A DNA stretch of 64,000 nucleotides from positions 124,001 to 188,000 of the forward strand of contig JAGQSC010000027.1 of the NCBI GenBank assembly GCA_020439745.1, given 5' to 3'. This DNA comes from Acidobacteriota bacterium. Lineage in GTDB: Bacteria > Acidobacteriota > Holophagae > Acanthopleuribacterales > Acanthopleuribacteraceae. Shown here one piece after another: positions 7,353-62,166 of this stretch (positions are counted from its first letter, which is position 1; every line of letters starts with the position of its first letter). The notes under the pieces were generated by a model. It made no database searches. It had not been told where the DNA came from and saw only the letters and a program-made list of their open reading frames with translations. Position numbers and translations under genes: made by a program.

Positions 7353-7960
7353 TAGGCTCCTTAATCGTAGCCTACTTGTGCGGCTCTATTCCCACGGCCA
7401 TTTGGGTCGGCCGAATAGCTCGCGGTATCGACATCCGCGAACATGGGAGCGGTAATGCTGGGGCTACCAATGCTTATCGTGTATTGGGTTGGAAGCTGGC
7501 GCTTATCGTCGTTTTTGTGGATGTTTTGAAAGGGTTCCTACCTACTTGGGCTGTGTCCCAGTGGTTCATGCCCAATCCACCGCTACTTCAGATCGGTGTG
7601 GGGATGGCTGCCATTTCTGGACATGTTTGGACCATTTTTGCGGGCTTTAGAGGTGGCAAGGGTGTTGGAACGGCAGCGGGTGTCCTTTTGGCTCTGTACC
7701 CAGTTGCTGTGCCTATATGTTTGGCAGTTTTTGCGTGTGTGGTTTGGCGCTCCGGCATGGTGTCCTTGGCGTCCATGTGTGCGGTGGCGACGCTCCCTGC
7801 GAGTTTATGGGTGTTGCAGCAATTTTTTGGGTATCGCATTCAAACCGAACTGTGGGTTCTGGCCATCGGAATTGTCCCGTTTGTGGTCTTTACGCATCGA
7901 AGCAACATAGGTCGCATTTTACGCGGCGAGGAACACCGATTCGGTCGATCAAAGTCCTAG
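7346..7960 (+). CDS. plsY: Acyl-phosphate:glycerol-3-phosphate acyltransferase PlsY
   Basis: 204 aa inner-membrane enzyme that transfers an acyl group from acyl-phosphate to glycerol-3-phosphate, the first step of phospholipid synthesis. Diagnostic motifs: GSIPTAIWVGR near the N-terminus, EHGSGNAGATNAYRVLGW (motif 1), and GFRGGKGVGTAAGV (motif 2). Five or so membrane segments. The start is a GTG (7346 or 7349), and the gene overlaps the end of the Fak fusion by a few bases, so the producer and consumer of acyl-phosphate are translationally coupled. The 3' end overlaps the convergent O-antigen ligase by 12 nt. Confidence 0.94.
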   Translation: MVIGSLIVAYLCGSIPTAIWVGRIARGIDIREHGSGNAGATNAYRVLGWKLALIVVFVDVLKGFLPTWAVSQWFMPNPPLLQIGVGMAAISGHVWTIFAGFRGGKGVGTAAGVLLALYPVAVPICLAVFACVVWRSGMVSLASMCAVATLPASLWVLQQFFGYRIQTELWVLAIGIVPFVVFTHRSNIGRILRGEEHRFGRSKS

Positions 7961-55504: not shown

Positions 55505-56488
55505 ATGTTCTGTCGTGCATGGGTATGGATGCTCTGTAGCGTGTGGATTCTGGCGGGTCGTGATTATCGAGTATATCGAGCGGGGAACAGCCGCGACGTG
55601 GTAACCGAGGTAGAGGCTGGTTTCGTGTTTATGGGTGGTGGAGGCGACGTACAAGAAGCTTTCGATTGGCTTATCGATCGCTCAGGAGGAGGTGACTTCG
55701 TCATACTACGAGCCGATCGACCGGACCGCCGTTTTAACTACTACGATTGGATCTATTCGGAACTGGGCGGTGTGGACTCTGCAGAGACCATCCATATCAA
55801 GAATCGCGCAGGCGCGAATGCAAACGAAGTTCGCGACCTCGTGATGCGTGCAGAGGCCATTTTCATTGCGGGTGGCAACCAAAACACCTATTTGGAGGAT
55901 TGGGCTGGAACACAGCTCGCTGCCGCATTGAACGATTGTGTCGCTCGGGGTGTGCCGATTGGCGGTACAAGTGCGGGTATGCATTTGATGTGTGCACGCG
56001 TCTACGATGGCCGCAATAATTCCAGTTATGGCTATGAGGCCCTTGAAGACCCTTATAACTTTCGAATGACGTTCACCCCCGGGTTTCTGAATGTGCCGCA
56101 TGTGGACGGCCTGACGACCGAGACACATTTCTACGAACGCGATCGAATGGGTCGCGCGATGGCGTTTGCCGCTCGGCTGGTTGAGGATGGCTGGTCCGAT
56201 TACGGACGCGTGCTGGCTGTAGATGAAGGTACGGCCTTTGTCATGGACGAGAATGGCTATGGTTATGTGCTAGGCGATGGATATGTCTACTTTTTGGAGA
56301 CCACAAGTCCACCTTCCGTATGCACGCCGGGTCAACCCCTAACCATCGACGATGTTTGGGTTTACCGTATTCGCGATGATTTCAGCCAGTGGTTTGACCT
56401 GAGCAATTTCAGTGGATCTGGGGGACTTGCGTATTGGTTAGACGCTGATGGGGGTACGTTGGTTTCGTCGCGGGGCTCTGTCTATTGA
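55505..56488 (+). CDS. Secreted cyanophycinase-like peptidase (S51)
   Basis: 327 aa. GGAGGG precedes the ATG; signal-like N-terminus MFCRAWVWMLCSVWILAG. S51 motifs: VFMGGGGDVQEAFDWLI, IFIAGGNQNTYL, the nucleophile Ser in GGTSAGMHLM (about residue 158) and THFYERDRMGR (catalytic His region). Cyanophycinases release beta-Asp-Arg dipeptides from cyanophycin; exported relatives act on extracellular polymers or other isoaspartyl-type peptides. No cyanophycin synthetase is present in the window. Transcribed from its own promoter, convergent with rtcA by 7 nt overlap. Confidence 0.85.
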   Translation: MFCRAWVWMLCSVWILAGRDYRVYRAGNSRDVVTEVEAGFVFMGGGGDVQEAFDWLIDRSGGGDFVILRADRPDRRFNYYDWIYSELGGVDSAETIHIKNRAGANANEVRDLVMRAEAIFIAGGNQNTYLEDWAGTQLAAALNDCVARGVPIGGTSAGMHLMCARVYDGRNNSSYGYEALEDPYNFRMTFTPGFLNVPHVDGLTTETHFYERDRMGRAMAFAARLVEDGWSDYGRVLAVDEGTAFVMDENGYGYVLGDGYVYFLETTSPPSVCTPGQPLTIDDVWVYRIRDDFSQWFDLSNFSGSGGLAYWLDADGGTLVSSRGSVY

Positions 56489-57489
56489 AGGACCTCCACC
56501 TGGTACATGCCCCTCAGGTCTTTCGTCCTGATTCGCACGGGCAGGAATTGTTCGATGGTCACGACGTTCGTCGTGAAGTGGGAAGACAGATGGTCGGTTG
56601 TAAATGATCCGCCACCCATCAAGGCCAAGGGCACCATCAACTGATCGGCAAGGTGTTCCTCAACGGCAGCGCCCGAATCTAGGTACCTTTTCACTCGATC
56701 AATCAATTGCAGGGCGAGCATTTCGGCTCGCAAGCCCCGTTTACCGCAGCTCGCGAAAACGGCCACCACGTGCTCGCGCCGAACGGTAATCGTCAGCACA
56801 TTACCTGGCCCTTGCGCATCGACCCGGCGCACCTTCGCGGAAGTCACATGGAGGCCTTCGCGACAGACGTTGATTTCACGCAATCCAATATGCTGAGGAA
56901 GCGTTGAAAGGATCGCTTCTGCATGGATCTCGGTGACCCTGCCCGGTTGGTCGAGGTGGATCGATTCGCGTTTTTGGGTGCCGCGAATTTCGGCTGTCAG
57001 ACGCCCACCGCCAGCTGGGTAGAAGCCGTGCTTGACAAGGTTTACCTGCATGGACGACTGAGTTGGAGCAAGTGCGGGAAGATAGCTGTTAGCCAAGAAG
57101 TCATAAGTCGGAGCCATGGTGTTGTGGGTGCCACCGTCGATTTGTACCGAGCTCGTACCTTCATGCATGATCATGGCTGGGATCAAGGTTTGCAGCACCA
57201 AGGCTGTACTTCCAGCGGTGCCAATGGCGATGTGATACGTGCCATGGCAAAAGGGACCGGGCTCGAATATGAGCGACTGAGCACCCAAATCAGCCCCCGA
57301 CACATACGCGCTGCACACACGGGCGGCCGCCAGCACCGATGTGAGGTGCTGGCGCATGAGGCCCGGATTTGCACGATTGGCGCGTAGGTTCACGAAACGA
57401 ACCGGCTGGCCTGTTGCCATAGAAAGGCTGAGCGACGAGCGCAAGATCTGGCCGCCGCCTTCGCCTTTTGAACCGTCAATGGTGATCAT
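56482..57489 (-). CDS. rtcA: RNA 3'-terminal phosphate cyclase
   Basis: 335 aa. Converts RNA 3'-phosphates to 2',3'-cyclic phosphates through an RNA-adenylate. N-terminal ITIDGSKGEGGGQILRSSL and the C-terminal ADQLMVPLALMGGGSFTTDHLSSHFTTN with the active-site His are characteristic. It follows rtcB by 3 nt on the minus strand and is presumably driven by the same sigma-54 promoter at 58739-58754. Part of the RNA repair locus. Confidence 0.95.
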   Translation of the reverse strand: MITIDGSKGEGGGQILRSSLSLSMATGQPVRFVNLRANRANPGLMRQHLTSVLAAARVCSAYVSGADLGAQSLIFEPGPFCHGTYHIAIGTAGSTALVLQTLIPAMIMHEGTSSVQIDGGTHNTMAPTYDFLANSYLPALAPTQSSMQVNLVKHGFYPAGGGRLTAEIRGTQKRESIHLDQPGRVTEIHAEAILSTLPQHIGLREINVCREGLHVTSAKVRRVDAQGPGNVLTITVRREHVVAVFASCGKRGLRAEMLALQLIDRVKRYLDSGAAVEEHLADQLMVPLALMGGGSFTTDHLSSHFTTNVVTIEQFLPVRIRTKDLRGMYQVEVLQ

Positions 57490-57492
57490 GGT

Positions 57493-58713
57493 TTATCCTT
57501 TGACACACACAACTTGTTTCAAAGTGTGTACGATCTCGACCAAGTCGGCTTGAGCTTCCATGACCTTGTGGATGGGCTTGTATGCCATAGGCGTTTCGTC
57601 AATCACCCCTTCATCCTTGCGGCACTCGACTCCTGCCGTTGCTTTGGCATGGTCCGCAATGGAGAAGCTGCGTTTCGCTTCCGTCCGCGACATCACACGG
57701 CCAGCGCCGTGGCTGCAAGTATGAAAGCTTTCAGGATTGCCTTTGCCACGGACGATGAACGAACACGCGCCCATGGAGCCTGGAATGATACCCATTTCGC
57801 CGAGCCCAGCACGAACCGCGCCTTTTCGGGTGACCCATACTTCTTCTCCGTAATGGGACTCCTTCGCCGCGTAGTTGTGGTGACAGTTGACGGCCTGCAC
57901 ATGGGTCTCGAACGGTGGCAACAGATTTGAGTCTCTGAGTGCCTCGATCATGTGAACCATCATGATCTCTCGGTTATTGCGTGCGAAGTCCTGAGCCCAA
58001 AGTACCGCTTCTACATAGTCGTCGAAATGAGCGCTACCTTCGGAAAAGTACGCAAGATCTCGGTGAGGCAACCGGCCGAGTTGGCGCTCCATGTCTTTCT
58101 TGGCAAGATTGATGAACATGGTGCCAATTCGGTTCCCGATACCTCGTGACCCACTGTGCAGCATGAACCAGACTCGATTCTGCTCGTCCAAGCACACTTC
58201 GACAAAGTGGTTGCCTGTGCCAAGTGTACCCAAGTGCACTCGGTCGTTGGCGTCTTTGATACGGGGGTGCTTTTCGACGATCAGGTCCAGTCGCTTAGCG
58301 AGCGGTTTCCAGACCTTATCCACAGATTTGGGGACTTTGGACCAGGCGCCCTTATCGTTGCGGCGTCCACCGCCCGACCGTCCATGGGGGATGGCACGTT
58401 CAATGACGTCGCGCACGCCCGCCAAGTGGTCCGGTAAGTCCGATGCCGCCAATGACGTTTGCACGGCCATCATGCCGCAACCCAAGTCCACTCCGACCGC
58501 GGCCGGGATGATCGCTGCCTTGGTGGGGATGACGCTTCCAATGGTGGCCCCGATCCCCACGTGCACATCGGGCATAGCGGCAACCCACTTGTGAATAAAC
58601 GGCATTTGCGCTGTTTGTCGCAGTTGCAATTCAGCTTTCGGATCGAACGGTACACCGTTCACCCATGCCTTTACGGGCACGCCGCCATGTACATGTAACG
58701 TTTGATAGCTCAT
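57493..58713 (-). CDS. rtcB: RNA-splicing ligase RtcB
   Basis: 406 aa. Joins 2',3'-cyclic-phosphate or 3'-phosphate and 5'-OH RNA ends with GTP and Mn. Metal ligands and nucleotide-binding blocks: VGVDLGCGM with the ligand Cys, DVHVGIGATIG, GTLGTGNHFVEV, HSGSRGIGN, and the guanylated His in HTCSHGAGR. The ATG is preceded by GGAGG at seven bases and by the -24/-12 promoter about 26 nt upstream. Heads the rtcBA operon controlled by the next gene, rtcR. Confidence 0.96.
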   Translation of the reverse strand: MSYQTLHVHGGVPVKAWVNGVPFDPKAELQLRQTAQMPFIHKWVAAMPDVHVGIGATIGSVIPTKAAIIPAAVGVDLGCGMMAVQTSLAASDLPDHLAGVRDVIERAIPHGRSGGGRRNDKGAWSKVPKSVDKVWKPLAKRLDLIVEKHPRIKDANDRVHLGTLGTGNHFVEVCLDEQNRVWFMLHSGSRGIGNRIGTMFINLAKKDMERQLGRLPHRDLAYFSEGSAHFDDYVEAVLWAQDFARNNREIMMVHMIEALRDSNLLPPFETHVQAVNCHHNYAAKESHYGEEVWVTRKGAVRAGLGEMGIIPGSMGACSFIVRGKGNPESFHTCSHGAGRVMSRTEAKRSFSIADHAKATAGVECRKDEGVIDETPMAYKPIHKVMEAQADLVEIVHTLKQVVCVKG

Positions 58714-58738: not shown

Positions 58739-58754
58739 GGCAATCTCGATGCCA
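58739..58754 (-). promoter_or_regulatory. Sigma-54 (-24/-12) promoter of rtcB-rtcA
   Basis: On the minus strand TGGCATCGAGATTGCC, an RpoN site with exact GG-N10-GC spacing. The transcription start is expected near 58728, leaving a leader of about 15 nt that contains the rtcB ribosome site. Confidence 0.85.
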
Positions 58755-58870: not shown

Positions 58871-60472
58871 CTATAAATCATTGACCGCGTGGCCGAGATC
58901 GAATTGGCTGGGCGAGAGCCCGAATCGTTGTAGGTATTTGCGCAAACGATCGGCATCGTTGGGGTTCTTCTTTTTTAGCCGCGAAGCCTGGAACAAGTGT
59001 CGGCCGGCCTCCGACAGTGTGCGCGATTTTTGACAGACTTGGATGACTTCTGTCAGTTGAATGCGGTCAAAGCGATCGATGGCTTCGATCTCTTCTTCGG
59101 ACAGATAGTTCAGCAGCAGAGGTGGGTCCGGTTCCGGTGCGCGCCAGTTGCGTTTGAGGCGCAGGATTTCGCCAGCTACCACATCCTGGGTGATACGTCC
59201 TGAAGGGGCCAGGGTGGCCATGCGCTGCACAGCCGCGTTGAGGTCGCGAAAGTTGCCGGTCCAGCTGGCTTCGGCGCTAAGCGCGAATTTGAGGAAATCG
59301 CGATAGGCCTCGCTATTGAAACGCACGTTTACACCATGACTTTGCGCGTGTTTGGCCAATTCATACTGTAGGTTGGGTTCCAGGTCTTCAAGGCGGTCCC
59401 GCAATGCGGGTAGCTCAAAGCTCCAGGTGTTGATGCGGGCCAGAAGGTCCTCGCGGAATGCTCCCTGTGCGACACAGTGCCACAGGTCGCGATTGGTCCC
59501 AGCAATGAGCTGGAACCGACTCTCTGTCTCGCGGTCGGAACCCAGCGGCAAGAAGCGGCCATCTTCAAGGGCGCGAAGGAGCATGGCTTGTTCGTCCAAG
59601 CCCAGTTCGCCTATCTCGTCCAAAAACAGCAGGCCCCGGTCCGCCAAACGCAGCAGGCCTGGCCTGTCGCTGAGTGCCCCCGTAAAGGCGCCTCGGGTGT
59701 GACCAAACAGAGCCGACATGGCGCCTTCACCGCGTAGCGTGCTGCAATTGACTTCGACGAACTCGCCTTTGAGTTGGTGCTTGCTGCGTTTGAGCTCGTA
59801 CAAGCGCTTGGCCAACTGCGATTTGCCTGCGCCCGTGGGTCCCATGAGCAGGATGGGCGCCTGCGAACGCATAGCCACCAACTCGATTTCATCGATCATG
59901 TGGTTAAAGTGGGCGTTTCTTGTGGCGATCCCCGATTTCAGGTGAGAACGGTGGGCTTCAGTTTCCTTGCCAAACCGTGTGGCAATAGCATCGTACCGAG
60001 AAAGATCCAAGTCGATGATTTGGTAACTGCCACATGGGTCGCGCCTGCCGTTTCGCGTGGGAGAAGTCTGGATGAGCTGTGCTGGAAAGTATCGTGCCTC
60101 GGTTAGCAGGAACAAGCAGATCTGGGCCACGTGGGTGCCAGTGGTGATGTGGACCAAGTAATGAATCTCGTCGCGATAGTCATAGTCAGTGGCAAAACTG
60201 TGCAATGCCGCAAACACGCCTTCAAAATCCCAAGGGTCTTCCATTTCCAGCTCATGTACGTGGATAGCGGTTCCTGGTGAAACTTGTTGCATGTCCTCGG
60301 TCAGTCTCTGTGCATGACTGGTGTAGGCGGAGGTCACGAGAAGGTCCAAGCGTGTGACCTGCAGATCCGGCTGCTGCAACAGTGAAACGGTGGGTCGCCA
60401 GCGCTCCCAGCGTTTACGTCCTTGTCCCGCATCCAGGGTGGGTCCGTAAAGTCCGATGACGTGTGTCTCCAT
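58871..60472 (-). CDS. rtcR: Sigma-54 activator RtcR with CARF-like sensor domain
   Basis: 533 aa. Residues 1-~165 are the RtcR regulatory domain, a divergent CARF-type Rossmann fold (VIGLYGPTLDAG; HYLVHITTGTHVAQICLFLL), which in known RtcR proteins senses damaged RNA ends and keeps the ATPase off until then. The AAA+ domain follows with Walker A GPTGAGKS at 211-218, the sigma-54 loop GAFTGA at 261-266, Walker B LLFLDEIGELG and R-finger FREDLLARI. The C-terminus is a short helical DNA-binding part. AGAGGG six bases before ATG 60472 fixes the start. It is flanked by rtcBA and the slipin locus, both with -24/-12 promoters, so one activator likely runs both sides. Confidence 0.94.
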   Translation of the reverse strand: METHVIGLYGPTLDAGQGRKRWERWRPTVSLLQQPDLQVTRLDLLVTSAYTSHAQRLTEDMQQVSPGTAIHVHELEMEDPWDFEGVFAALHSFATDYDYRDEIHYLVHITTGTHVAQICLFLLTEARYFPAQLIQTSPTRNGRRDPCGSYQIIDLDLSRYDAIATRFGKETEAHRSHLKSGIATRNAHFNHMIDEIELVAMRSQAPILLMGPTGAGKSQLAKRLYELKRSKHQLKGEFVEVNCSTLRGEGAMSALFGHTRGAFTGALSDRPGLLRLADRGLLFLDEIGELGLDEQAMLLRALEDGRFLPLGSDRETESRFQLIAGTNRDLWHCVAQGAFREDLLARINTWSFELPALRDRLEDLEPNLQYELAKHAQSHGVNVRFNSEAYRDFLKFALSAEASWTGNFRDLNAAVQRMATLAPSGRITQDVVAGEILRLKRNWRAPEPDPPLLLNYLSEEEIEAIDRFDRIQLTEVIQVCQKSRTLSEAGRHLFQASRLKKKNPNDADRLRKYLQRFGLSPSQFDLGHAVNDL

Positions 60473-60606: not shown

Positions 60607-60622
60607 TGGCACGCTGATTGCC
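60607..60622 (+). promoter_or_regulatory. Sigma-54 (-24/-12) promoter of the tRNA-like RNA and slipin gene
   Basis: TGGCACGCTGATTGCC, a near-perfect RpoN site (TGGCAC-N5-TTGCC, exact GG-N10-GC). Transcription should start near 60633 and run through the structured RNA region (60640-60950) into the slipin gene at 61031, giving an unusually long leader of about 400 nt. Confidence 0.88.
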
Positions 60623-60643
60623 TTTCTGTGTCTTGTTGACCAC

Positions 60644-60663
60644 GGTTCCGGTGGCACCGAACC
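60644..60663 (+). ncRNA. Hairpin at the 5' end of the leader RNA
   Basis: Arms GGTTCCGGTG and CACCGAACC pair with a single bulged C, just after the predicted transcription start. It could protect the 5' end or be a processing signal. Confidence 0.5.
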
Positions 60664-60693
60664 TGCCCTTACGGTTTGGGTTGCGGTGTTCCA

Positions 60694-60781
60694 TGTACGG
60701 TCTCATCCAACGTCAACGCGCTGAATGGTACAGCACGATGCTTTTAACATCGAGAAGCGGGTTCGATTCCCGCCCTTACGT
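60694..60781 (+). ncRNA. tRNA-Lys(UUU)-like RNA with a defective acceptor stem
   Basis: From 60720 the cloverleaf arms are clear: D-arm GCTG-AATGGTA-CAGC (60720-60734), anticodon arm CGATG-CTTTTAA-CATCG (60736-60752) with the canonical Lys loop and UUU at the anticodon position, a 4-nt variable loop, and a T-arm GCGGG-TTCGATT-CCCGC (60757-60773). The 3' acceptor strand CCTTACG (60774-60780) has no good partner at the normal place: the heptamer at 60711-60717 pairs at only four of seven positions, while TGTACGG at 60694-60700 pairs at six of seven but leaves a 19-nt insertion before the D-arm. No CCA is encoded. So it is a tRNA mimic or decayed tRNA rather than a standard tRNA gene; it lies between an RtcR-type sigma-54 promoter and the slipin gene. 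Confidence 0.72.
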
Positions 60782-60840
60782 AGGTAACGACACTGGGGAA
60801 AGGAGCATGTTTGAAGGGATGACGACACCGGACTGGTGAG

Positions 60841-60950
60841 GGGGCGGTTCGGTTGGAAAATGGCCAGTGGGCCCTGCAGCCTTACGGATACCGCTCGTCT
60901 GCGGCGAGTGCGAATACGCGCATCTAGGTGAGCGTTTTGCACGCCGCCCC
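60841..60950 (+). ncRNA. Second structured RNA element in the slipin leader
   Basis: GGGGCGG (60841-60847) pairs perfectly with CCGCCCC (60944-60950), closing a ~110-nt domain; a further T-G pair extends it. Inside are hairpins, e.g. GCTCG (60893-60897)/CGAGT around TCTGCGG, and a GGGCCC self-complement. The stretch before (60782-60840) and after (60951-61030) shows no gene and no strong fold. Together with the tRNA-like part it makes the leader look like a multi-domain non-coding RNA. Comparison with Y RNAs is tempting but no Ro60 gene is present in the window. Confidence 0.45.
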
Positions 60951-61030
60951 ATATGAGCTCAAGTAAGGCTCCGCGCCACGCACCTTCTAAAGCTCAGACA
61001 TGCTCTGGACCTCGAGAAAGGAGAAAGACA

Positions 61031-62134
61031 TTGATCAAAATAGTAACCATCCAATCCTGCCATCTGGGACTGGTAACGCGCAACGGTGAATTGGTGCGCG
61101 TGCTAGAGCCTGGCCGGCATACCATTCTGGGTTTTCATCGGCTGGACGTAGTGAACTGTTTGGAATCCCAGTGGTCACCTGAGGACTTGGAACGTCAAGT
61201 GCGTTTTGCACCGCTTGCGGCACACCTGCACGTGGTGGACCTTCACGACCACCAAAGGGCTCTGGTTTGGCGTGAAGGCCGATTGCATGCCCTGCTTGGG
61301 CCTGGAATCCATGCGTTTTGGCGCTCGCCTTGTGTGATTCGGTTCGAAGTTCTGGAGATCCAGGACTTGAGATTCGAACACCGAGAAATGGATACCATCC
61401 TATTGCTTCACGACGCGCGATACCACTTGGAAGACATCCATGTTCAGGCACATCAAAACGTACTGATGTTCCGGGACGGCTCCTTGATGGAACGTCTGGA
61501 GGCGGGACGACACGTGTTCTGGAAAACTGGAGCGGATCTGCGTCAAGTGGTCGTGGAACTTCGGGAGCAATATCTGGATATCCAGGGTCAGGAGATTATG
61601 TCGTCCGACAAAGTGAGCCTGCGGGTGAACATGTCGGTGGCGTATCGTGTGGCGGACCCAGTCATGGCACATGCTGAGGCTGAAGATCCTGCGCGTGCGC
61701 TGTATCGCGAAGCACAACTGGTTTTGCGCGCCGCGGTGGGAACCCGAACTCTAGATGAATTGCTGGCGGATAAAGAGTCCATTGCGGGAGAAGTACGTGA
61801 TGGTCTGCAAGTGTCTGCGGCACGTCTTGGTTTGGCGCTGAACACCGTAGGTGTGCGTGACATCATCCTTCCGGGCGATATGAAAGAACTCTTGAACCAG
61901 GTTACCGAAGCCCAAAAAGCATCGGAAGCCAACATCATTCGTCGACGTGAGGAAACGGCAGCAGCCCGTAGCCAAGCCAACACCGCACGTTTATACCAAG
62001 ACAACCCGGCCCTCTTGCGCATGCGCGAGTTGGAGGCCATTCAGGACATCATGAAAAACGCCCAGACCACATTTCATATGGGCCAAGGCGCGTTATTGGA
62101 TCAACTGCGCTCGTTGTTGCGGGTTGACCCCTAA
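61031..62134 (+). CDS. Slipin / band-7 (SPFH) family protein
   Basis: 367 aa from TTG 61031, set by AAAGGAG seven bases upstream; the in-frame codons upstream lie in the structured leader and are not protein-like. N-terminal ~130 residues are an unusual repeat of the start of SPFH proteins (LVTRNGELVRVLEPGRHTIL; ALVWREGRLHALLGPGIHAF; VLMFRDGSLMERLEAGRHVFW). Then the SPFH core (LDIQGQEIMSSDKVSLRVNMSVAYRVADP, ALYREAQLVLRAAVGTRTLDELLADK, LGLALNTVGVRDIILPGDMKELLNQV) and a C-terminal coiled-coil-like EAQKASEANIIRRREETAAARSQANTA. No clear membrane helix. Co-occurrence with RtcR/RtcB suggests a membrane or scaffold role in RNA repair. Confidence 0.85.
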   Translation: MIKIVTIQSCHLGLVTRNGELVRVLEPGRHTILGFHRLDVVNCLESQWSPEDLERQVRFAPLAAHLHVVDLHDHQRALVWREGRLHALLGPGIHAFWRSPCVIRFEVLEIQDLRFEHREMDTILLLHDARYHLEDIHVQAHQNVLMFRDGSLMERLEAGRHVFWKTGADLRQVVVELREQYLDIQGQEIMSSDKVSLRVNMSVAYRVADPVMAHAEAEDPARALYREAQLVLRAAVGTRTLDELLADKESIAGEVRDGLQVSAARLGLALNTVGVRDIILPGDMKELLNQVTEAQKASEANIIRRREETAAARSQANTARLYQDNPALLRMRELEAIQDIMKNAQTTFHMGQGALLDQLRSLLRVDP

Positions 62135-62136
62135 AG

Positions 62137-62166
62137 ACAGAGCTCCCCAATATCGGGGAGCTCTGT
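62137..62166. terminator. Bidirectional hairpin terminator
   Basis: Perfect 12-bp inverted repeat ACAGAGCTCCCC / GGGGAGCTCTGT with a 6-nt loop, between the slipin stop (62134) and the stop of the convergent secreted-protein gene (62182). The T-run is weak, but the position and strength of the stem make it the terminator of both. Confidence 0.7.

What the first reader, a model, noticed from the sequence alone, without database searches (positions are those of the whole stretch)
60607..62134. RtcR-type sigma-54 locus makes a tRNA-Lys-like RNA and a slipin next to RtcB/RtcA
Seen directly: a near-perfect -24/-12 promoter, then a tRNA-like RNA with Lys anticodon loop CTTTTAA and UUU, then a slipin gene, divergent from rtcR and next to rtcBA, which has its own -24/-12 promoter. 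Established: RtcR activates rtcBA through sigma-54 and, in Salmonella, the operon also carries a Ro60 homologue and tRNA-like Y RNAs. Inference: here a damaged-RNA-responsive locus pairs a tRNA-Lys mimic with a slipin. A Lys mimic could be a decoy or repair substrate for anticodon nucleases of the PrrC kind, which cut tRNA-Lys. I do not know whether this exact arrangement is already described.
Basis: partly seen in the sequence, partly recalled or inferred. Interest (0 to 1): 0.93.

Follow-up and report, generated by a model that had tools for sequence, protein, structure and literature searches.

The report
tRNA-like RNA with a repair-operon slipin
Beside a bacterium's RNA-repair genes sits a switch-controlled gene pair, a degenerate tRNA-shaped RNA and a slipin protein, that recurs across several bacterial phyla; it belongs to a known type of RNA-repair locus, and the idea that it specifically imitates lysine tRNA does not hold up.

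Summary
A sigma-54 promoter (60607), a tRNA-like RNA (about 60710-60782; Rfam tRNA 43 bits) and a slipin (61031-62134) form one unit divergent from rtcR, and rtcBA has its own -24/-12 site. The RNA is not a working tRNA: its acceptor stem pairs poorly and it lacks the CCA that 32 of 32 checked tRNA genes of this genome encode. Related loci show it is maintained: a covarying 5' hairpin plus tRNA-like fold precedes this slipin subfamily in Acidobacteriota and Verrucomicrobiota, with reduced forms in Burkholderia, E. coli and Citrobacter. Neighbours are often rtcR, rtcB, rtcA or RlaP.

The anticodon is not conserved (Lys, Leu, Phe, Met, Asn, Pro and others; some loops shortened), and no PrrC-like gene was found, so the Lys-mimic/PrrC idea is not supported. 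The kind of system is already described (Burroughs & Aravind 2016; known here through a citing paper and memory). Apparently less described: genuine tRNA arrays beside the same slipin, sometimes with RtcB inside, and the 5' hairpin. Best reading: the RNA is a tRNA-mimicking cofactor of an SPFH assembly in an RtcR-controlled RNA-damage response.

The parts
60607..60622 (+). sigma-54 (-24/-12) promoter of the RNA-slipin unit
   Evidence: TGGCACGCTGATTGCC; scores 15.0 of 15.2 on my -24/-12 scale; similar sites precede most relatives that have RtcR and none of 8 that lack it
60648..60700 (+). conserved 5' hairpin of the leader RNA: CCG-GUGG-[variable stem]-UU-CCAU-GUA-CGG
   Evidence: covariation in 10 relatives; model R2 finds only this place in the window (46.8 bits; the window is one of its training rows) and, among other loci, its best matches lie just upstream of the tRNA-like element
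60710..60782 (+). tRNA-like element: D arm 60720-60734, anticodon arm 60736-60752 (loop CTTTTAA), T arm 60757-60773; weak acceptor 60711-60717/60774-60780; no CCA
   Evidence: RF00005 43.1 bits; 4/7 acceptor pairs; covariation in 11 relatives
61020..61023 (+). ribosome binding site GGAG of slipin
   Evidence: read directly from the sequence
61031..62134 (+). slipin / SPFH protein, 367 aa, TTG start: three five-stranded beta repeats, SPFH domain, long C-terminal helices, no evident membrane segment
   Evidence: Band_7 E 3.9e-32; predicted structure pLDDT 85
62137..62166 (+). intrinsic-terminator-like hairpin ending the unit
58871..60472 (-). rtcR, sigma-54 activator with CARF-like sensor domain
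   Evidence: NF038308 764 bits, cut-off 650
58739..58754 (-). sigma-54 promoter of rtcBA
   Evidence: TGGCATCGAGATTGCC
57493..58713 (-). rtcB RNA ligase
   Evidence: PF01139 E 7.8e-125
56482..57489 (-). rtcA RNA 3'-phosphate cyclase
   Evidence: NF003246 389 bits, cut-off 352

Best explanation
This is an RtcR-controlled RNA-damage-response locus of the SPFH plus tRNA-like-RNA type. Damaged tRNA ends activate RtcR (established in Salmonella; inferred here). RtcR then fires two divergent sigma-54 promoters (predicted): one for rtcBA, one for a transcript carrying a structured RNA (5' hairpin plus tRNA-like fold) followed by slipin. The RNA is not decoded; it most likely acts as a tRNA-shaped cofactor or scaffold of the soluble slipin oligomer, presenting a tRNA elbow that brings repair or tRNA-handling enzymes to the assembly, much as Y RNA does for Ro60 (inferred). 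The Lys anticodon is incidental.
For: Same linkage in unrelated lineages: rtcR next to RNA-slipin with rtcB, rtcA or RlaP in Burkholderia, Photobacterium, Citrobacter and Verrucomicrobiota. Structure maintained: 89.7% of cells paired against 73.6% shuffled, 22 of 32 pairs with changes on both sides. Five new slipin loci not used for the model all carry a match upstream, against 1 of 19 loci of other SPFH genes. Elbow arms (D, T) are nearly invariant while anticodon and outer acceptor vary. Promoter-like sites track RtcR. RtcR binds 2',3'-cyclic-phosphate tRNA fragments in Salmonella (PMC7790460). In Anabaena a translational-stress regulon joins a tRNA array, rtcB and a slipin (PMC10272220). 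Bacterial MVP homologues and operon ncRNAs are implicated in RNA repair (PMC13404743 citing Burroughs & Aravind 2016).
Against: No transcript, RNA-protein contact or phenotype is shown. The RNA lies in the slipin 5' leader without a terminator between, so a purely cis role is possible. In E. coli and Citrobacter only the T arm is recognisable. RNA model R1 also matches ordinary tRNAs up to 74.7 bits, so its tRNA half does not separate mimic from tRNA. Many RNA-slipin loci in Acidobacteriota have no RtcR.
Confidence: 0.6

Rival explanations
1. The leader RNA works only in cis: the tRNA-like fold is a processing mark (RNase P or RNase Z cuts there) or a regulatory leader that controls slipin translation or transcript stability.
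For: It lies in the slipin transcript with no terminator in between; elbow and inner acceptor, the features tRNA-processing enzymes read, are best conserved. In RtcR-lacking relatives a terminator-like hairpin stands upstream of the RNA, so leader control of some kind may exist.
Against: The 5' hairpin and the long 3' part are more than a processing mark needs; acceptor stems are often too poor for standard processing; the loss of all but the T arm in E. coli is hard to fit to RNase P marking.
Confidence: 0.25
2. The element is a decayed or reserve tRNA: the locus once carried a tRNA array supplying replacement tRNAs, and the window keeps a remnant.
For: Relatives carry arrays of 8-31 tRNAs, most with normal anticodons and encoded CCA, beside the same slipin; several single elements still end in CCA.
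Against: The single element keeps covarying stems, its own 5' hairpin, and can coexist with a separate array: in L088 the array is on the other strand, and in L113, L051 and L052 the hairpin sits between array and slipin. Decay would not keep compensatory changes.
Confidence: 0.08
3. One reading: a tRNA-Lys mimic acting as decoy or substrate for PrrC-type anticodon nucleases.
For: The loop CTTTTAA is an intact tRNA-Lys(UUU) loop. In Salmonella the YrlA tRNA-like domain was proposed as a competitive inhibitor of an anticodon nuclease (PMC7790460).
Against: Different anticodon in almost every relative; Burkholderia loops shortened; no PrrC-like AAA_13 protein found; no special likeness to own tRNA-Lys.
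Confidence: 0.04

Closest known systems
SPFH/Band-7 RNA-repair systems with a tRNA-like ncRNA (Burroughs & Aravind 2016, Nucleic Acids Res 44:8525; cited in PMC13404743)
   Same: SPFH (MVP-like) protein and an ncRNA in RtcB operons; RlaP nucleotidyltransferase in relatives; RtcR control
   Different: The paper was not held, so detail was not compared. Here rtcBA is a separate divergent unit, RlaP is elsewhere in the genome, and the 5' hairpin and neighbouring tRNA arrays are features I could not find described.
Salmonella rsr-yrlBA-rtcBA operon (Ro60 and Y RNAs)
   Same: RtcR, sigma-54, rtcBA and a tRNA-like ncRNA with a protein partner
   Different: No Ro60/TROVE protein found in this genome, no Rfam Y RNA match; the protein partner is a slipin
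Anabaena trn operon / L-array with TrcR regulon
   Same: Stress regulon containing tRNA genes, rtcB and a slipin
   Different: Repressor TrcR, no RtcR or sigma-54; a full tRNA array rather than one degenerate element; genes not adjacent
Vault particle (MVP, vault RNA)
   Same: Beta repeats, SPFH and long helix predicted in one soluble protein; whole-model Foldseek match to MVP, E 4.8e-10
   Different: The N-terminal repeats alone give no significant MVP match (E 0.21); stomatin is the closer match

Membership tests
RtcR-regulated rtcBA RNA-repair locus | RtcR orthologue with CARF-like and AAA+ domains | tested here: met
   NF038308 764.4 bits over cut-off 650; PF06956 E 5.1e-73
RtcR-regulated rtcBA RNA-repair locus | rtcB and rtcA with a sigma-54 promoter | tested here: met
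RtcR-regulated rtcBA RNA-repair locus | Induction by damaged tRNA ends | not testable with these tools
   needs expression data
SPFH plus tRNA-like-RNA repair system (Burroughs & Aravind 2016) | SPFH/Band-7 gene linked to RtcB/RtcR | tested here: met
   same linkage in relatives
SPFH plus tRNA-like-RNA repair system (Burroughs & Aravind 2016) | Cognate tRNA-like ncRNA upstream of the SPFH gene | tested here: met
   The original definition could not be read
SPFH plus tRNA-like-RNA repair system (Burroughs & Aravind 2016) | RlaP nucleotidyltransferase partner (optional module) | tested here: inconclusive
   absent from this operon; RlaP matches lie elsewhere in the genome; present in Citrobacter, Burkholderia and Subdoligranulum operons
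Ro60 / Y RNA system | TROVE-domain protein | tested here: not met
   no PF05731 match in the genome, 97% complete
Ro60 / Y RNA system | Y RNA family match | tested here: not met
   cmscan at E<=1 gives only tRNA and a weak Tymo tRNA-like match
Functional tRNA-Lys | Seven-pair acceptor stem and 3' CCA | tested here: not met
   4/7 pairs, no CCA; 32 of 32 parsed own tRNA genes encode CCA
Functional tRNA-Lys | Lys anticodon in a seven-base loop | tested here: met
   CTTTTAA at 60741-60747, not conserved in relatives
PrrC-type decoy | PrrC/RloC-type nuclease in the genome and a conserved Lys loop | tested here: not met
   no PF13166 match; anticodons vary
Major vault protein | MVP-type N-terminal repeats before the SPFH domain | tested here: inconclusive
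   whole model E 4.8e-10; N-terminal part alone not significant

The most novel reading that the evidence does not exclude
The leader RNA (5' hairpin plus tRNA-like fold) is the dedicated RNA of a vault-like soluble SPFH cage, and in some lineages the same locus also carries a near-complete reserve set of real tRNAs with RtcB inside the array: one damage response that both repairs and replaces cut tRNAs, with the tRNA mimic free to change its anticodon because only its elbow matters.
Probability: 0.3. Interest if true: 0.75.

Novelty: new member of a known kind. Interest (0 to 1): 0.5.

Why it matters
The role of SPFH proteins and tRNA-like RNAs in bacterial RNA repair is predicted but, as far as I could find, untested. 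The comparison narrows it: the anticodon is dispensable, the elbow and a 5' hairpin are kept, and the RNA goes with this slipin rather than with Ro60. The slipin-RlaP form with an unannotated leader occurs in 1,627 of 5,426 complete E. coli genomes, including the commensal strain HS, so the question can be tested in an ordinary laboratory species. The tRNA arrays with RtcB link this to the Anabaena translational-stress tRNA operon.

Tried and rejected
Lys-specific decoy: rejected on anticodon turnover and lack of a PrrC-like gene. Ro60/Y RNA membership: rejected, no TROVE. Chance tRNA resemblance: rejected. Minimum-free-energy fold of the whole leader: not informative, z -1.0. RNA model R1 as a stand-alone detector: rejected, ordinary tRNAs reach 74.7 bits, so a 5'-hairpin-only model was built. 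MVP membership: left open after the N-terminal-only search failed. Phage search for the slipin: no match. The key 2016 paper is not held. Literature searches for RtcR or RtcB with slipin/SPFH found only the Anabaena papers.

Full report
What is in the window. The unit runs from a -24/-12 site at 60607 to a terminator-like hairpin at 62137-62166 and holds a structured leader and one gene, slipin, starting at TTG 61031. It is divergent from rtcR (58871-60472), and rtcB-rtcA follow rtcR with their own -24/-12 site at 58739-58754. The tRNA-like element at 60710-60782 scores 43.1 bits with Rfam tRNA over model positions 10-63, that is without the acceptor ends. It has clean D, anticodon and T arms, four of seven acceptor pairs and no CCA. 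In 5,000 approximately dinucleotide-preserving randomisations of the leader none reached its score. All 32 tRNA genes of the genome that I parsed encode CCA, so this is not one of the working tRNAs.

Relatives. The same slipin subfamily was found in 12 of 347 sampled Acidobacteriota genomes at E below 1e-100, in four family relatives, in Verrucomicrobiota, and on records of Burkholderia, Photobacterium, Citrobacter, E. coli and Subdoligranulum. The Acidobacteriota and Verrucomicrobiota examples examined carry a tRNA-like element upstream or lie in or beside a tRNA array. Of 19 loci of other SPFH genes only one has a tRNA nearby. Neighbouring genes repeat: rtcR with slipin and rtcB in Burkholderia and Photobacterium, rtcR with slipin and RlaP in Citrobacter, and rtcR, slipin, rtcA and rtcB in three Verrucomicrobiota loci.

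The RNA as a family. An alignment of eleven leaders, with a structure of a 5' hairpin plus cloverleaf, has 89.7% of cells paired, 22 of 32 pairs with changes on both sides, and beats all shuffles and slid versions. The structure was drawn partly from these sequences, so the paired percentage leans in its favour; the both-sided changes are the stronger measure. The 5' hairpin alone also covaries. A model of the hairpin alone finds only this place in the window (the window is one of its training rows), and its best matches among other loci lie just upstream of the tRNA-like element: L115, L113, L057, L116, L114, L051, and more weakly L052. Only the first two of these are significant by E-value; the rest gain weight from position and strand. 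Burkholderia, E. coli and Citrobacter leaders do not match the hairpin model at the right place. Model R1 reaches 74.7 bits on ordinary tRNAs; four of the five new Verrucomicrobiota loci exceed that, and the fifth (68.3) does not.

The anticodon is not the point. Anticodons read UUU (window), UAG, GAA, GUU, CAU, UGG, GAU, ACG, AGG, AUG and AUU across relatives, several of which (AUU, AUG, AGG) bacteria do not normally use (general knowledge). Loop length also varies, and in Burkholderia the loop is cut down to GAAA- or AAA-type ends. What stays is the D arm, the T arm and the inner acceptor pairs, that is the tRNA elbow. The same-genus relative shares D and T arms with the window but has a different anticodon arm. 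With no PrrC-like protein found, a Lys decoy is unlikely.

Regulation. RtcR was found in 9 of 20 genomes checked. Of 15 leaders from RtcR-bearing genomes, 13 have a -24/-12-like score of at least 13.0 and ten of at least 14.0; none of 8 leaders from RtcR-lacking genomes exceeds 12.0. The shuffled background is 13.0 at 90% and 14.0 at 99%, and the three Burkholderia are not independent. In RtcR-lacking Acidobacteriota a terminator-like hairpin stands upstream of the RNA instead (read), which hints at attenuation; I did not test this.

tRNA arrays. Two same-class genomes (L059, L060) have 26-31 predicted tRNAs around slipin with RtcB inside the array. Cerasicoccus (L052, L053), L051, L113 and L088 have 8-17. 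Most encode CCA and have normal anticodons, so these look like real tRNAs. In L113, L051 and L052 the 5' hairpin lies between array and slipin, so array and leader RNA are separate parts. In Anabaena, TrcR represses a 26-tRNA operon, rtcB and a slipin together (PMC10272220), and the same genes shift together in a second data set (PMC9938897). Whether the Anabaena slipin belongs to this subfamily was not tested.

The protein. The predicted model (pLDDT 85) has three five-stranded repeats, an SPFH domain and long helices, with no membrane segment evident. Foldseek gives stomatin first and major vault protein at E 4.8e-10 over the whole length; the N-terminal repeats alone match nothing significantly. 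Vault likeness is therefore plausible but unproven.

What is known. RtcR senses tRNA fragments with cyclic phosphate in Salmonella, where the operon carries Ro60 and Y RNAs (PMC7790460). A 2026 preprint states that bacterial MVP homologues and ncRNAs sharing their operon are implicated in RNA repair, and that RtcB shares operons with them, citing Burroughs & Aravind 2016 (PMC13404743). From memory, that paper's abstract names SPFH/Band-7 modules with a novel tRNA-like molecule and a novel nucleotidyltransferase; I could not read it. On that basis the window is a new member of a known kind. The tRNA arrays, the 5' hairpin and the anticodon turnover may be additions, but I cannot exclude that they are described.

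E. coli. 1,627 of 5,426 complete genomes hold the slipin-RlaP locus. Its 350-nt leader is at least 99% identical to the query in 1,171 of them, against 228 for the 2.2-kb locus, and no feature is annotated in the leader of the records listed. The -24/-12 site, a hairpin region and the T arm are shared with Citrobacter. Strain HS carries it.

Limits.

Noticed in passing
L059:913-9543 and L060:7516-13841: Arrays of 26-31 predicted tRNA genes, most with encoded CCA, around slipin, with rtcB inside the array (same-class genomes without RtcR).
   Followed up: partly
L088:5478-7132 (-) and 7547-7691 (+): A 14-tRNA array divergent from the leader tRNA-like RNA and slipin: array and mimic coexist as separate parts.
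   Followed up: partly
L063:8672-8744, L067:8675-8744, L068:8226-8298: Burkholderia tRNA-like element with the anticodon loop cut to a GAAA/AAA-type end, preceded by an acceptor-plus-T-arm-only element.
   Followed up: partly
L088, L089, L090, L091, L093, L094: upstream of the leader RNA: Terminator-like hairpins upstream of the RNA in RtcR-lacking genomes, with possible short leader ORFs; looks like attenuation control.
   Followed up: no
L124:6001-8276 (E. coli HS) and L061:8650-10925: Slipin-RlaP locus with an unannotated conserved leader in 1,627 of 5,426 complete E. coli genomes; in HS a zeta-toxin family gene lies next to it.
   Followed up: partly
L096:6327-8343 (G000:C63): Two adjacent RlaP-family genes elsewhere in the window's own genome.
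   Followed up: no
L057:8269-9966 and L058:7698-9506: Slipin relatives with longer N-terminal parts, apparently extra copies of the beta repeat.
   Followed up: no
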